A stretch of DNA of 64,000 nt from NCBI GenBank assembly GCA_019358835.1, contig JAHHIH010000014.1, forward strand, positions 1 through 64,000. Reading direction: 5' to 3'. Both the position numbers and the translations under genes were made by a program. Positions 40,162 to 43,511 of this stretch are shown here, one piece after another. A model generated the notes under the pieces. The model was not told where the DNA came from and searched no databases. It saw only the letters and a list, made by a program, of their open reading frames with translations. The stretch is from Tildeniella torsiva UHER 1998/13D. GTDB lineage: Bacteria; Cyanobacteriota; Cyanobacteriia; Phormidesmidales; Phormidesmidaceae. Within the stretch, counting starts at the first letter, position 1. Each line of letters starts with the position of its first letter.

Positions 40162-40244
40162 TCCGTTCTGTTCCTTACCTACCGTGGACTGGCGGAGTCG
40201 GGCTGACTACTCAGAGATGGGAGCGGGCGCGGTATCTTAGTGCT

Positions 40245-43200
40245 ATGGCCTACGAACCGCTGCACCACAAGTATCGCCCCCAGACCTTTGGCGCTCTGGT
40301 GGGTCAAGATGCGATCGCGACTACCCTCACCAGCGCCCTCAACCAGCGGCGCATTGCCCCGGCCTACCTGTTTTGTGGCCCTCGAGGCACGGGCAAAACC
40401 TCCAGCGCCCGCATTTTGGCCAAGTCGCTCAACTGTATTGCCCAAGATCACCCCACTCCAAACCCTTGCGGCACCTGCGAAACCTGTCGCTCGATCACTA
40501 ACGGCTCGGCCCTCGACTTCATTGAAATCGACGCCGCCAGCAACACCGGGGTCGATAACATCCGTGAGCTGATCGAGCGTGCCCAGTTTGCCCCGGTACA
40601 GTGTCGGTACAAGGTGTATGTGATCGACGAGTGCCTGACTGGCGACTCCTTAGTTCTCACCCAAGACGGCCTAGTCAGGATCGACGACCCTGCGATCGAA
40701 GGTAAGCAGGTGCTCAGCTATGACGACCAAATAGGCACATGGGAGTTTAAGCGTGTTCTGCGCTGGCTTGACCAAGGCACCCGAGACATCTTGGAAATTC
40801 AGACTACCCATCGTAAGATCAGGTGTACTGGCAATCATTTAATTAGAACTGATCAGGGATGGGTAGCCGCAAGGGAGATCAAATCGGGGAGCAAGATCTT
40901 GTCCCCTGCGCCTGTGGCTGCGGCACCCTCATCAACAGAGTTGGCTCTGATCGACGACTCCGGCGTTTCGTACGAGGGCACCAGTTTAGGGGCAATACCT
41001 ACGGCCAAAGACCTTACAGCCTTGAGCTTATCCTTGAGCAAGCTGAGTCCCTGCGGCCAAGTTGCAAATGTGGCTGTGGCGAAAAACTTGGTATCCCAGA
41101 ATTCTTGCAGCAAAAAGGGAAAGGACTCAAAAGCATTCAAAGTCATTGGAAAAAACACCCTTATAGAAAGGGGCATGGGCTTTGGGATCTCAGAACCGAG
41201 CACCTTAACGAGCAGCTCAAACCACTTTCTGCCGAAACCCTTGGGCTTATCTACGGCACTCTGCTGGGGGATGGATCCATCATTTATCCCAATAAATACA
41301 GCAGATTCCCCCGCCTGGCCTGGACTCATGGGGAACAGCAACGGGCATGGATGGAATACAAAGCATCCCGACTCTCCAACTTACGGCCCAGCCTATACAG
41401 CACAGCCAACGCCGGTTACGGTGCAACCTCTATCTGTTGTCGAACCGTCTGTCATCCTGAACTTGTCCAAGTCTTTGACCTCGTCAGAAGTGACGGTGGA
41501 CGAAAAGTCGTTTCCCATGGCTGGTTATCCCAAATTTCTCCAGAAGGACTGGCCTGGTGGTACATGGATGATGGCTCCCTCAGCCTCAGCCCCCAAGGCA
41601 GCCCCCAAATTCAGTTCCATACCGAAGGCTATTCCAGCGCAGAAAACCAGCTCATTGCTGGATGGCTCACCGACTTGGGTTACTCAGCAAAAGTTAGATC
41701 CTACACAAGAACCCTCAGTGGCAGATACGACTACGTCGCAATGGGTGCAAAGGCAGCTCGAAGCTGGCTGGTCGAGCTTCAACGGTTTTCCATTCCTGAA
41801 ATGGACTACAAGTTTGGAAACGGTCGTATCTGTGACCCCCGCTGGGGCTGAGCCGGTTTACGACATAGAGGTGGAGGATAACCACAACTTTGTCGCCAAT
41901 GGGTTGTTGGTTCACAATTGCCACATGCTCAGCACCGCGGCATTCAATGCCTTGCTCAAAACCTTAGAGGAACCGCCCAGCAATGTGGTGTTTATCCTCG
42001 CCACCACTGACCCTCAGCGGGTGCTGCCGACGATTATTTCGCGCTGTCAGCGGTTCGACTATCGGCGTATTCCCCTAGAGCCGATGATTGCTCACCTGCG
42101 AAAAATTGCCGACCAGGAAACCATCGTTATCAACGACGAGGCCCTGCGGCTGGTGGCTCAGGTTTCCCAGGGGGGGCTGCGCGATGCCCAGAGTCTGCTC
42201 GACCAGCTCAGTCTGCTAGAACCTCCCGTGGAAGCCGATGCGGTGTGGGATCTGGTGGGAGCCGTGCCCGAGCGCGATTTGCTGGCTCTGGTTCAGGCCA
42301 TCCTCAGCGACGACGGCACCGCCGTGCTCGACGGTGCCCGCAAGCTGATGGATCGGGGCCGGGAGCCACTGATTGTGCTGCAAAACCTGGCCGGGTTCTA
42401 CCGAGATCTGTTGATTGCCAAGACGGCGGGCGATCGCCACGACCTGGTCGCCATCACTCCCCCCACCTGGGCCGACATGCAAACCCTGGTGCAACAATTG
42501 GATCCAATGGTGCTGCTGCTGGGGCAACAGCACCTGCGCAGCGCCGAGGTGCAGATTAAAAACACCACCCAGCCCCGGCTGTGGCTAGAGGTGACGCTGC
42601 TAGGGCTGCTGCCATCGACGCTGGCCGGGCAGGCCAGTGGTGCCATGAGCGCTGGGCGGGCAGGGGGTGCGATCGCCCCTCCGATCACCCCAACGATCGC
42701 ACCCAGCCCCCCGCCTCAGCCAGCACCGCCAATCGTCAGTCCACCATCATCAGTGCCGCCGCCCGCACCGCCAGACCTAATGGTGCCGCCGGAAACTGCC
42801 AATGGGGCAGCGTCAAAGCCAGCCCCCGTGCCTGCCGTCGCATCAAATTCTCCCCCCAACAATAGCCAGGATGTGCCGCCCGCTGAAGCCACCCCATCCC
42901 CTAACCTGGTGCAGCTATGGCTTCAGGTGATAGCGGTGTTAGAGCCCCTGGGCACCCGCGCACTGATGCAACAGCAGGGCAGCCTGCTGTTTTTCGATGG
43001 GGTGGTGGCCCGAGTCGGCATTAGCTCTAGGCCACTGTTTAAGATGGCCCAGGGCCGAGTCGAGAATGTGGAAGCGGCCTTTCAGCAGGTGCTCAACCAC
43101 AAAGTGCAGGTTTCCCTGGAGGTGCTGCCCGACCCAAAGCCTGAGGCCCCAGCCCCCAACATTTCCCAGGCGCCGGGGCAGCAAAATACCACCCCACCAA

Positions 43201-43511
43201 CTCCAGTAGTGCTCAGTCCTCCGCCCCCGCCTGTCGTCTCAGCGCCCCCGGCAGAATCGCCAGCAGAACCAGCGGCAACTCCTGAACCTGCTCTTGCGGC
43301 AGACGCTAGCCCCGCTGCGCCTGTGCCACCGTCTTTACCTGCGATCGCCAGCGACTTTGACCGAGCCGTGAAAAACTTTGCCCATTTCTTTAACGGCCAG
43401 GTGGTTGATTTAGACGATGACCTAAGCCCTGGGCTCGACACAACCCTACTGAAACCCTCAGAGGCGGCTGCTAAGCAGCCCTCCCACGCTGACAAGGACG
43501 TGCCGTTTTAG
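40245..43511 (+). CDS. dnaX: DNA polymerase III tau/gamma subunit (DnaX) with intein
   Basis: Clamp-loader ATPase. Residues 1-129 form the N-extein: MAYEPLHHKYRPQTFGALVG, the P-loop GPRGTGKT (45-52), a Cys4 zinc knuckle around PCGTCETC, then Walker B (YKVYVIDE). The intein occupies 130-558. The C-extein resumes with CHMLSTAAFNALLKTLEEPP, then ILATTDPQRVLPTI (sensor 1) and GLRDAQSLLDQLSLLE (sensor 2). A very Pro-rich linker and a C-terminal tau region follow, ending ADKDVPF, similar to the SSB acidic tip. The spliced protein is 659 residues. A frameshift signal of the E. coli dnaX type (A-AAA-AAG) was not seen. The ATG at 40245 starts the conserved region; the upstream frame is non-conserved. 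Confidence 0.95.
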   Translation: MAYEPLHHKYRPQTFGALVGQDAIATTLTSALNQRRIAPAYLFCGPRGTGKTSSARILAKSLNCIAQDHPTPNPCGTCETCRSITNGSALDFIEIDAASNTGVDNIRELIERAQFAPVQCRYKVYVIDECLTGDSLVLTQDGLVRIDDPAIEGKQVLSYDDQIGTWEFKRVLRWLDQGTRDILEIQTTHRKIRCTGNHLIRTDQGWVAAREIKSGSKILSPAPVAAAPSSTELALIDDSGVSYEGTSLGAIPTAKDLTALSLSLSKLSPCGQVANVAVAKNLVSQNSCSKKGKDSKAFKVIGKNTLIERGMGFGISEPSTLTSSSNHFLPKPLGLSTALCWGMDPSFIPINTADSPAWPGLMGNSNGHGWNTKHPDSPTYGPAYTAQPTPVTVQPLSVVEPSVILNLSKSLTSSEVTVDEKSFPMAGYPKFLQKDWPGGTWMMAPSASAPKAAPKFSSIPKAIPAQKTSSLLDGSPTWVTQQKLDPTQEPSVADTTTSQWVQRQLEAGWSSFNGFPFLKWTTSLETVVSVTPAGAEPVYDIEVEDNHNFVANGLLVHNCHMLSTAAFNALLKTLEEPPSNVVFILATTDPQRVLPTIISRCQRFDYRRIPLEPMIAHLRKIADQETIVINDEALRLVAQVSQGGLRDAQSLLDQLSLLEPPVEADAVWDLVGAVPERDLLALVQAILSDDGTAVLDGARKLMDRGREPLIVLQNLAGFYRDLLIAKTAGDRHDLVAITPPTWADMQTLVQQLDPMVLLLGQQHLRSAEVQIKNTTQPRLWLEVTLLGLLPSTLAGQASGAMSAGRAGGAIAPPITPTIAPSPPPQPAPPIVSPPSSVPPPAPPDLMVPPETANGAASKPAPVPAVASNSPPNNSQDVPPAEATPSPNLVQLWLQVIAVLEPLGTRALMQQQGSLLFFDGVVARVGISSRPLFKMAQGRVENVEAAFQQVLNHKVQVSLEVLPDPKPEAPAPNISQAPGQQNTTPPTPVVLSPPPPPVVSAPPAESPAEPAATPEPALAADASPAAPVPPSLPAIASDFDRAVKNFAHFFNGQVVDLDDDLSPGLDTTLLKPSEAAAKQPSHADKDVPF
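40632..41918 (+). mobile_element. DnaX intein (429 residues)
   Basis: Inserted in the Walker B helix (DE|CHMLS), so dnaX cannot work until splicing joins the exteins. Block A is CLTGDSLVLTQDG with Cys1. Block B is IRCTGNHLIRTDQGW with TxxH at 66-69. Blocks F/G at the C terminus are EPVYDIEVEDNHNFVAN and NGLLVHN, ending His-Asn before Cys+1. These give all splicing residues. The roughly 330-residue middle is not an in-frame endonuclease: it is Ser/Pro/Thr-rich and featureless in the dnaX frame, because a nested LAGLIDADG gene is encoded there in the -1 frame. The size agrees, from memory, with the approximately 430-residue DnaX intein known from Synechocystis. Confidence 0.95.
40859..41851 (+). 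CDS. Nested out-of-frame LAGLIDADG homing endonuclease
   Basis: A 330-codon ATG-to-TGA frame lies wholly inside the intein, shifted -1 relative to dnaX. It has two LAGLIDADG motifs, TLGLIYGTLLGDGS (catalytic Asp 138) and PEGLAWWYMDDGSL (Asp 237/238), spaced for a monomeric enzyme, and a C-terminal FSIPEMDYKF, as in the PF03161 endonuclease family usual in group I introns. Two N-terminal Cys knuckles (PCACGCG at 16-22 and SCKCGCG at 68-74), each ending in (R/K)GH, look like zinc sites. An in-frame TGA at 40850-40852 precludes any longer start. The SD is weak (CAGGG immediately upstream). It probably cuts intein-less dnaX alleles. Translation by internal initiation is inferred. Confidence 0.85.
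   Translation: MGSRKGDQIGEQDLVPCACGCGTLINRVGSDRRLRRFVRGHQFRGNTYGQRPYSLELILEQAESLRPSCKCGCGEKLGIPEFLQQKGKGLKSIQSHWKKHPYRKGHGLWDLRTEHLNEQLKPLSAETLGLIYGTLLGDGSIIYPNKYSRFPRLAWTHGEQQRAWMEYKASRLSNLRPSLYSTANAGYGATSICCRTVCHPELVQVFDLVRSDGGRKVVSHGWLSQISPEGLAWWYMDDGSLSLSPQGSPQIQFHTEGYSSAENQLIAGWLTDLGYSAKVRSYTRTLSGRYDYVAMGAKAARSWLVELQRFSIPEMDYKFGNGRICDPRWG

What the first reader, a model, noticed from the sequence alone, without database searches (positions are those of the whole stretch)
40859..41851. Complete LAGLIDADG endonuclease nested in the -1 frame inside the DnaX intein
Inteins normally carry the homing endonuclease in frame between splicing blocks B and F. Here the dnaX frame between those blocks is featureless, and a separate 330-codon ATG-TGA gene in the -1 frame encodes both LAGLIDADG motifs, a PF03161-like ending and zinc-knuckle repeats. 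It begins within the block B coding sequence and its TGA overlaps the codon for Glu407, just before block F. The element thus combines a splicing protein and a group-I-intron-type endonuclease on the same DNA. I cannot exclude that related DnaX inteins are already known to have this arrangement.
Basis: partly seen in the sequence, partly recalled or inferred. Interest (0 to 1): 0.95.

Follow-up and report, generated by a model that had tools for sequence, protein, structure and literature searches.

The report
Endonuclease gene hidden inside an intein
A self-splicing insert in a cyanobacterial DNA-replication gene carries, on the same DNA but in another reading frame, a complete DNA-cutting enzyme that probably spreads the insert, and the same two-in-one design recurs in other cyanobacteria and some phages.

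Summary
A 429-aa DnaX intein (40632-41918) contains, in its -1 frame, a 330-aa PF03161 LAGLIDADG endonuclease (40859-41851; E 5.8e-21; predicted fold closest to I-SceI). It is not chance or an artefact: all 40 distinct full-length cyanobacterial DnaX inteins that I collected have this layout. The dnaX frame is open in 52 of 52 distinct inteins, including those whose endonuclease is broken or deleted. The most variable codon position switches from the dnaX frame to the endonuclease frame and back at the nest's edges. In the dnaX frame 291 middle residues are predicted unstructured, while the ends form a splicing domain. Related inteins sit at DE|C in phage helicases, again with a -1 nested PF03161 endonuclease; one (Xanthomonas phage FoX3) is absent from five phages with near-identical helicase genes. 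In two phages that I examined such a nest sits in a helicase broken into two genes, a putative split intein. Terminase-like inteins nest the endonuclease in the +1 frame. Best reading: a mini-intein plus a separately translated homing endonuclease. Splicing, expression and homing of this copy are inferred. A 1998 paper that I could not read may already describe overlapping frames in inteins.

The parts
40248..43511 (+). dnaX (DNA polymerase III gamma/tau) with intein; N-extein 40248-40631 (128 aa), C-extein 41919-43508
   Evidence: NCBIfam NF011510 E 8.5e-239, TIGR02397; in this genome the junction query matches only these two halves and a 34% paralogue
40632..41918 (+). DnaX intein, 429 aa, DE|C...HN|C, inserted in the Walker-B motif VIDE|CHML
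   Evidence: PF14890 E 1.1e-14; TIGR01443, TIGR01445; AF2 model aligned to Mtu RecA, DnaB and Spirulina DnaX mini-inteins, Z 21-23, rmsd 1.3-2.7 over about 135 residues
40632..40919 (+). N-terminal part of the splicing (Hint) domain, intein residues 1-96
   Evidence: pLDDT above 90 for residues 1-90; dnaX-frame pN/pS 0.24 over codons 1-74
40920..41792 (+). dnaX-frame read-through of the nested gene, intein residues 97-387, predicted unstructured
   Evidence: pLDDT under 50 throughout, blocks of 22-28 for most of it; dnaX-frame core pN/pS 1.13; partly or wholly deleted in 12 shorter inteins
41793..41918 (+). C-terminal part of the Hint domain (blocks F, G), intein residues 388-429
   Evidence: pLDDT above 90 from residue 391 on; dnaX-frame pN/pS 0.07 downstream of the nest
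40859..41851 (+). nested LAGLIDADG homing endonuclease gene, -1 frame, 330 aa, ATG...TGA
   Evidence: PF03161 E 5.8e-21; AF2 mean pLDDT 82.3; Foldseek best I-SceI 5a0m E 1.1e-11, TM 0.73 by target length
40907..40981 (+). first C-x-C-x-C...H knuckle-like repeat (endonuclease residues 17-41)
   Evidence: near-invariant in 33 aligned relatives; zinc binding is inferred
41063..41176 (+). second C-x-C-x-C...H knuckle-like repeat (residues 69-106)
   Evidence: C69, C71, C73, H106 invariant in 33 of 33; zinc binding is inferred
41231..41275 (+). LAGLIDADG motif 1 (TLGLIYGTLLGDG; G137, D138 invariant)
   Evidence: helix 125-136
41540..41578 (+). LAGLIDADG motif 2 (GLAWWYMDDGS; D237, D238, G239 invariant)
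   Evidence: helix 228-238
40859..40897 (+). 5' zone where both frames look constrained
   Evidence: pN/pS 0.70 (endonuclease frame) and 0.62 (dnaX frame), with low pS in both
41789..41851 (+). 3' zone where both frames look constrained (endonuclease MDYKFGxGRICxPRW over a conserved Hint strand)
   Evidence: pN/pS 0.33 and 0.79; conserved in both alignments

Best explanation
This is a mobile 'double-decker' intein. In the dnaX frame the DNA encodes a mini-intein whose two Hint parts are joined by a long, sequence-indifferent linker; protein splicing would remove all of it and restore the Walker-B motif of DnaX. In the -1 frame the linker DNA encodes a separate protein, an I-SceI-like LAGLIDADG homing endonuclease with two N-terminal C-x-CGC repeats, probably translated from its own ATG inside the dnaX mRNA. 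The endonuclease would cut intein-less dnaX at the DE|CH codons, and repair from the intein-bearing copy would insert the whole nested element. Shown by sequence: both reading frames, their different selective constraints, fold predictions, avoidance of stops in both frames, patchy distribution, one-sided decay, and a precise presence/absence difference of a homologous nested intein between near-identical phage genes. Inferred: splicing of this copy, translation of the endonuclease, its cleavage site and homing.
For: PF03161 hit and intein hits in different frames. Same frame relation in 40 of 40 distinct full-length inteins; dnaX frame open in 52 of 52; endonuclease frame without a stop before offset 1200 in 34 of 40; third frame 10-27 stops. 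The most variable codon position switches frame at the nest edges; endonuclease core pN/pS 0.33 with pN<pS in 253 of 253 pairs, dnaX frame over the same DNA 1.13, third frame 1.35. G137, D138, D237, D238 invariant in 33 of 33. Endonuclease frame folds (pLDDT 82; I-SceI best match); dnaX frame folds only at its ends. ATG at the nest start in 40 of 40; the Gly codon that makes it is GGA in 39 of 39 full-length elements with Gly there, and the one Ala codon (GCA) keeps the ATG; two control Gly codons of the same inteins are GGA in 24 of 40 and 7 of 38. Endonuclease loss leaves the splicing frame intact: 10 strongly deleted and 5 early-stop copies, 0 dnaX-frame stops. Patchy: 8 of 57 genomes (own included) carry the element or a remnant, 42 of the 57 show an uninterrupted site. 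FoX3 phage helicase intein (942 nt, -1 nested, PF03161 E 8.9e-22) is absent from five phages 96.9-99.5% identical over the matched helicase DNA; exact empty site read in four. Splicing of an engineered Ssp DnaX mini-intein in E. coli is published (+++; PMC3620165, passages seen).
Against: No direct evidence of translation: no sigma-70-like promoter was found in 40500-41000, and I saw no clear Shine-Dalgarno sequence at the usual spacing (by eye). No cleavage or homing data. In cyanobacteria inheritance looks partly vertical: intein and extein nucleotide identity correlate (r 0.78 over 597 pairs). Six of 40 full-length copies have at least one endonuclease-frame stop before offset 1200. GGA before the Trp codon is also kept in 11 of 12 shorter inteins, so part of the ATG conservation may be descent. 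In the endonuclease tree the broken-helicase phages (L093, L094) do not join the DnaX group, and the DnaX/phage-helicase group has support 93/86, below the usual mark.
Confidence: 0.88

Rival explanations
1. Nested relic: the endonuclease was functional in an ancestor but is now dead; the open -1 frame is residual and the DNA persists only as an intein linker.
For: 5 of 40 full-length copies have early stops and 10 of 12 shorter copies have lost much of the endonuclease; partly vertical distribution.
Against: Purifying selection in the endonuclease frame among 23 elements without early stops (pN<pS in 253 of 253 pairs); catalytic aspartates invariant in 33 of 33 aligned; no early stop in the window copy and in 34 of 40.
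Confidence: 0.1
2. The endonuclease is made by programmed -1 ribosomal frameshifting from the dnaX frame, giving a Hint-N/endonuclease fusion rather than an independent protein.
For: The frame relation is -1, and E. coli dnaX is a classic -1 frameshift gene (recalled). Three of 40 elements have an in-phase X XXY YYZ heptamer just after the ATG.
Against: 37 of 40 have none between the last upstream stop and about endonuclease codon 21; the last endonuclease-frame stop lies only 6-60 nt before the ATG; ATG in 40 of 40. Terminase-like phage cases are in the +1 frame.
Confidence: 0.05
3. The dnaX-frame middle segment itself has a selected protein function (for example a regulatory linker), and the endonuclease frame is incidental.
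For: It is open in 52 of 52.
Against: pN/pS 1.13 and 43% mean identity against 67% in the endonuclease frame; pLDDT under 50; removed wholly or partly in 12 shorter inteins. Openness is explained by the need to make DnaX.
Confidence: 0.02
4. Assembly or sequencing artefact: indels on each side put an ordinary in-frame intein endonuclease out of frame.
For: None found.
Against: Same frame in 40 of 40 distinct inteins from many assemblies, 35 of them exactly 1290 nt long.
Confidence: 0.001

Closest known systems
Bifunctional inteins with an in-frame LAGLIDADG domain (e.g. PI-SceI, PI-PfuI; here KLEP7, Bobby, Miltoncostaea RNA-ligase, K44 DNA-polymerase and L098 terminase-like inteins)
   Same: A Hint splicing domain with a LAGLIDADG endonuclease coded between blocks B and F; all five of these hold a PF03161 domain in frame (frames).
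   Different: Here the endonuclease is in another frame, has its own ATG and stop, and cannot be part of the spliced-out intein protein; the in-frame stretch is predicted unstructured.
Synechocystis PCC 6803 (Ssp) DnaX intein and Spirulina DnaX mini-intein (7cfv)
   Same: Same host gene; the Spirulina mini-intein aligns with the window's Hint model at 55% identity.
   Different: [quoted passage not shown] in the passages seen there is no word of another frame. The Ssp sequence itself was not available to me. Spirulina's is a 136-aa mini-intein (PMC3103413 passages).
[quoted passage not shown] abstract, introduction, three other sections and passages read)
   Same: A homing-type endonuclease hidden out of frame in an insertion that leaves the host frame open.
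   Different: The authors found support for neither intein nor intron; the endonuclease is HNH. Here the insert has a complete splicing domain and the endonuclease is LAGLIDADG.
I-SceI (group I intron homing endonuclease)
   Same: Closest solved fold (Foldseek E 1.1e-11, TM 0.73-0.76 by target length).
   Different: 16-17% identity over the aligned part. Recalled, not tested: encoded in an RNA intron, without the C-x-CGC repeats.
Fractured genes with split inteins (Dassa et al. 2009, recalled, not read)
   Same: Pectobacterium phage Amona and Escherichia phage AN_ECEAS helicases are in two genes with intein N and C parts and an endonuclease gene between.
   Different: Here a PF03161 endonuclease gene overlaps the first helicase gene's end and, in Amona, the second gene's annotated start, in the same -1 relation as the unbroken nests; the nuclease family of the 2009 cases is another one as I recall.
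Gorbalenya 1998, Non-canonical inteins (not held; not read)
   Same: PMC11855218 cites it, with another paper, for overlapping reading frames in actinobacteriophages (reference list), so it may describe an overlapping case in an intein.
   Different: Unknown; this is the main risk to novelty.

Membership tests
LAGLIDADG_2 homing endonucleases (PF03161) | Profile match above the curated cut-off | tested here: met
   75.6 bits against cut-off 25, E 5.8e-21
LAGLIDADG_2 homing endonucleases (PF03161) | Two LAGLIDADG helices with acidic active-site residues and two alpha-beta-beta-alpha-beta-beta-alpha repeats | tested here: met
   Helices 125-136 and 228-238 with strands in the expected order (predicted); D138, D238 invariant; I-SceI top fold match
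LAGLIDADG_2 homing endonucleases (PF03161) | Site-specific double-strand cleavage of the empty site | not testable with these tools
   Needs a cleavage assay
Intein (Hint, class 1) | C1, TxxH block B, HN|C at the C-terminus, Hint fold | tested here: met
   C1, T66, H69, H428, N429 invariant in 24 of 24 aligned; PF14890; Z 21-23 to solved inteins
Intein (Hint, class 1) | Protein splicing of this copy | not testable with these tools
   An Ssp DnaX mini-intein splices in E. coli (PMC3620165 passages)
Bifunctional intein with in-frame endonuclease | Endonuclease domain in the host reading frame between blocks B and F | tested here: not met
   Pfam and NCBIfam show no endonuclease domain in the dnaX frame of the intein at E up to 1 (protein 3); the segment is predicted unstructured
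Mini-intein | Short splicing domain without endonuclease coding | tested here: not met
   Mini in predicted protein fold, but 330 endonuclease codons on the same DNA
Group I intron with endonuclease ORF | Conserved intron RNA core around the ORF | tested here: inconclusive
   No Rfam match at gathering score in the 3990-bp L001; none of three matches at E up to 10 in 40200-42300 is an intron. The dnaX frame stays open and encodes splicing blocks, which speaks against an intron
Out-of-frame endonuclease insertion (ShiLan type) | Endonuclease out of frame in an insertion without splicing domain | tested here: not met
   A complete Hint domain is present; the out-of-frame feature itself is shared

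The most novel reading that the evidence does not exclude
A distinct class of mobile element: inteins in which splicing and homing are two separate proteins on overlapping frames of one DNA stretch, inserted at the DE|C Walker-B codons of AAA+ ATPases and helicases. Hint domains of the DnaX and phage-helicase nests are related, and so are the endonucleases of DnaX, L082 and L084, so the nested pair appears to have moved as one unit between different host genes. When the host frame is no longer kept open, it breaks into a split intein with the endonuclease gene bridging the halves, as in the Pectobacterium and Escherichia phage helicases, which gives a concrete route for the origin of natural split inteins. 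Terminase-like inteins nest a PF03161 endonuclease in the other (+1) frame, so nesting arose more than once.
Probability: 0.6. Interest if true: 0.92.

Novelty: new variant of a known kind. Interest (0 to 1): 0.83.

Why it matters
Inteins are usually described as one polypeptide doing both splicing and homing. Here the two functions share DNA but not protein: a same-strand gene overlap of about 990 nt, with selection acting on the endonuclease frame and on the openness of the other, kept in dozens of cyanobacterial genomes. It hides likely functional endonucleases from frame-based annotation, and it explains why the middle of the DnaX intein looks featureless in the host frame. The phage cases with an unbroken and a broken host frame suggest how split inteins could arise. 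It is also a ready experimental system: recoding can remove one product without changing the other.

Tried and rejected
Group I intron at this locus: Rfam at gathering score on L001 and at E up to 10 on 40200-42300 gave no intron match. Programmed frameshifting: in-phase slippery heptamers in only 3 of 40. Promoter inside the intein: none found (weak test). Phage or plasmid as carrier of the DnaX version itself: no close copy (best listed phage match 34.5% identity, only plasmid match 28.8%; viral contigs best 36%). Genus of G068: 1 of 5 genomes has it; I could not tell whether Synechocystis PCC 6803 is among them. The endonuclease tree is weak (14 of 38 inner branches open, five long end branches): DnaX and two phage-helicase nests group at 93/86, FoX3 and the in-frame KLEP7 come next (84/87), while L093/L094 fall elsewhere on a long branch (52/63); I draw no firm branching from it. 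Ungapped extein/intein comparisons are lowered by any indel: rows with L052 (and L063) are shifted by 3 nt, and low extein values for L059 and L071 may have the same cause. BLASTP E-values refer to a database of only 16 short sequences.

Rows left out before counts: of 81 loci then held, 61 gave an intein with both ends, 9 of them exact duplicates, leaving 52. Of the other 20, 16 have no DnaX motif (L024-L027, L031, L032, L072-L081), L006 and L046 run off contig ends, and L017 and L060 were missed by my start motif (checked later: same layout); these four are not in the 40. For codon positions and pN/pS I used 28 elements of exactly 1290 nt under 95% identity, and for pN/pS left out 5 with early endonuclease stops, giving 23; pairs are not independent. 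Alignment A1 holds 33 endonucleases without early stops, A2 24 of the inteins.
Full report
What is there. In the window a dnaX gene (40248-43511) is interrupted after VIDE by a 429-aa intein (40632-41918) that ends in HN and is followed by CHML. In the dnaX frame Pfam and NCBIfam find splicing blocks (PF14890 E 1.1e-14; TIGR01443, TIGR01445) and no endonuclease. In the -1 frame an ATG-TGA gene of 330 codons (40859-41851) matches PF03161 LAGLIDADG_2 at E 5.8e-21. In the own genome a query across the splice junction matches only the two halves around this intein and a 34% paralogue, so the intein probably must splice if the cell is to make DnaX (inference).

More than chance. Holding either protein fixed, random recoding with window codon usage never kept the other frame open (0 of 20000 each; means 11.2 and 13.7 stops); permuting the endonuclease's own synonymous codons kept the dnaX frame open in 7 of 20000. 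The third sense frame has 16 stops over the overlap.

Relatives. A scan of genome contigs gave 48 loci: 38 cyanobacterial loci in DnaX (L034-L071) and 10 Bacillaceae loci of 25-43% identity in which my DnaX intein motifs were not found. Of 57 genomes (own and relatives) 8 match, the own included; two of them (G014, G023) hold only remnants. Of 386 genomes drawn from the phylum 20 match, the own included: 10 near full length, 6 remnants in DnaX, and 4 distant genes elsewhere. After removing 9 duplicates I had 52 distinct DnaX inteins, 40 of at least 1280 nt and 12 shorter. The dnaX frame has no stop in 52 of 52. In the 40 long ones the endonuclease is always in the -1 frame; 34 have no endonuclease-frame stop before offset 1200 (the six with one are L003, L018, L044, L051, L055, L061), and the third frame has 10-27 stops. 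Two further loci that my start motif missed (L017, L060) have the same layout.

Selection. Among 28 non-redundant 1290-nt elements the most variable codon position is position 3 of dnaX in codons 0-80 and 400-430, and position 3 of the endonuclease (position 2 of dnaX) in between. Among 23 of these without early endonuclease stops, mean pN/pS is 0.24 in Hint-N, 0.33 for the endonuclease frame of the core (pN<pS in 253 of 253 pairs), 1.13 for the dnaX frame of the same core (42 of 253), 1.35 for the third frame (1 of 253), and 0.07 in Hint-C. Short zones at both ends look constrained in both frames. Pairs are not independent and such ratios in overlapping genes are only a guide; the switch of position is the robust result.

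Fold. The nested protein is predicted at mean pLDDT 82.3 with two LAGLIDADG repeats; I-SceI is the best solved match (E 1.1e-11). By sequence alone the PDB gave only one weak match, an intron-encoded endonuclease (6x1j, I-WcaI) at E 0.23. The dnaX-frame intein is confident at its ends and under pLDDT 50 for residues 97-387; aligned to solved inteins, Mtu RecA, Ssp DnaB and Spirulina DnaX give Z 21-23. So one frame is predicted to fold as an endonuclease, the other as a splicing domain with a long loose linker.

Start of the nested gene. ATG is present at the nest start in 40 of 40 long inteins (in L052 and L063 shifted by an upstream 3-nt insertion). The dnaX codon before Trp that creates it is GGA in all 39 cases with Gly, and in the one with Ala (GCA) the ATG is kept; two control Gly codons are GGA in 24 of 40 and 7 of 38. 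Among 12 shorter inteins 11 also keep GGA and one has GGG. In-phase slippery heptamers occur in only 3 of 40. I infer direct internal initiation. No promoter-like site was found and I could not identify a ribosome-binding site with confidence, so expression remains the weakest link.

Decay is one-sided. Ten of the 12 shorter inteins have lost much of the endonuclease (L067 and L068 lack mainly the first C-x-CGC repeat and keep a 276-aa frame), and five long ones have early stops (L003, L044, L051, L055, L061), all with an open dnaX frame. This is expected if splicing is essential and homing optional.

Mobility. The element is patchy: 8 of 57 genomes have it or a remnant, 42 show an uninterrupted match across the site at 80-100% identity, and 7 are fragmentary or without a clear match (my count from the rows). 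Intein and extein identities correlate (r 0.78), and the intein is the more similar in 396 of 597 pairs. Some pairs within the genus conflict with the host: L001/L004 exteins 82.8% but Hint part 74.3%, L001/L008 81.0% but 86.8%. So both inheritance and transfer seem to act.

Phage relatives. Viral contigs L082 and L084 and Xanthomonas phage FoX3 (L088) have ResIII-type helicases with an intein at DE|C above the PF14890 cut-off and a PF03161 endonuclease in the -1 frame (E 1.6e-16, 8.1e-14, 8.9e-22). Their Hint parts match the window's at 40-44% identity. Ten phage records match the FoX3 helicase gene: two are FoX3 itself, eight (FoX1, FoX2, FoX5 twice each, Murka, M29) cover 60% of it at 96.9-99.5% identity. 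In the four that I read (Murka, FoX5, FoX2, M29) the 942-nt intein is exactly absent, and the 60 bases around the junction differ from FoX3 by one or two bases, all within three bases of the junction, compatible with a recent homing event and short co-conversion. FoX3's endonuclease lacks the C-x-CGC repeats.

Broken host frame. In Pectobacterium phage Amona and Escherichia phage AN_ECEAS the helicase is in two genes: the first ends with intein N blocks, the second begins with intein C blocks, and a PF03161 endonuclease frame (E 5.6e-8 and 1.1e-6) lies between and overlaps in the same -1 relation. PF14890 reaches each Amona part only below its cut-off, as expected for halves. The helicase frame has 13 and 10 stops in between while the endonuclease frame is open. 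I read this as a split intein that arose when the nest's host frame was no longer kept open; trans-splicing is untested, and the endonuclease tree does not place these two with the DnaX group. Listings show four more Pectobacterium phages and at least one more Escherichia phage with similar matches, which I did not open.

Another frame. Terminase-like genes in viral contigs L085 (with its near copy L086) and L087 carry a PF03161 endonuclease (E 9.1e-22, 1.8e-24) in the +1 frame between intein blocks. PF14890 reaches L087 below its cut-off and is not listed for L085, whose intein I call from its blocks; the terminase profile is above its cut-off only in L087. In-frame PF03161 domains occur in inteins of L090, L091, L092, L095 and L098. 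None of those five has the C-x-CGC repeats; all 38 DnaX nests longer than 250 aa have at least one, as do L082, L084, L093, L094 and L083, a PF03161 gene without visible host frame. Six other such genes (L097, L099, L101-L104) and the +1 nests lack them. This favours, without proving it, a free endonuclease gene landing out of frame in a mini-intein as the origin of the DnaX/helicase group.

Literature. Ten keyword searches of the held library listed no paper that by title or abstract describes a nested endonuclease in DnaX inteins (one search listed 25 of 33). PMC3620165 (passages) counts Ssp DnaX among inteins with putative endonuclease domain sequences and shows that its mini-intein splices. 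PMC11855218 (abstract, introduction, sections 4.1, 4.3 and Conclusions, and passages; [quoted passage not shown] From memory only, that paper deals with unusual Synechocystis inteins and may mention overlapping frames for DnaX; I put this at roughly even odds. I therefore call this a new variant of a known kind and lower the interest slightly.

Noticed in passing
L072-L080 (Bacillaceae), e.g. L072:5991-8790, L073:1114-9390: In 8 of the 10 Bacillaceae loci (not L075, L081) the endonuclease gene lies near group I introns on the opposite strand (five in L072), and L073 and L076 also have c-di-GMP-I riboswitches there.
   Followed up: no
L085:4763-6016, L087:4709-6619: Terminase-like inteins of viral contigs with the PF03161 endonuclease nested in the +1 rather than the -1 frame.
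   Followed up: partly
L093:1680-4895, L094:1728-3400: Helicases broken into two genes with intein N and C parts and an overlapping endonuclease gene: putative natural split inteins in Pectobacterium and Escherichia phages.
   Followed up: partly
L024, L025, L026, L027, L032: A separate cyanobacterial family of distant LAGLIDADG-like genes (25-29% identity to the query) in which the first motif's acidic residue is altered in some (LLGTG, LLGKG) and the second motif in some (WFMDKGS, WFMDNGS), so possibly domesticated.
   Followed up: no
genomes G002 (C236), G015 (C2), G032 (C2): Second, uninterrupted DnaX-like gene at 60-64% identity over the junction query.
   Followed up: no
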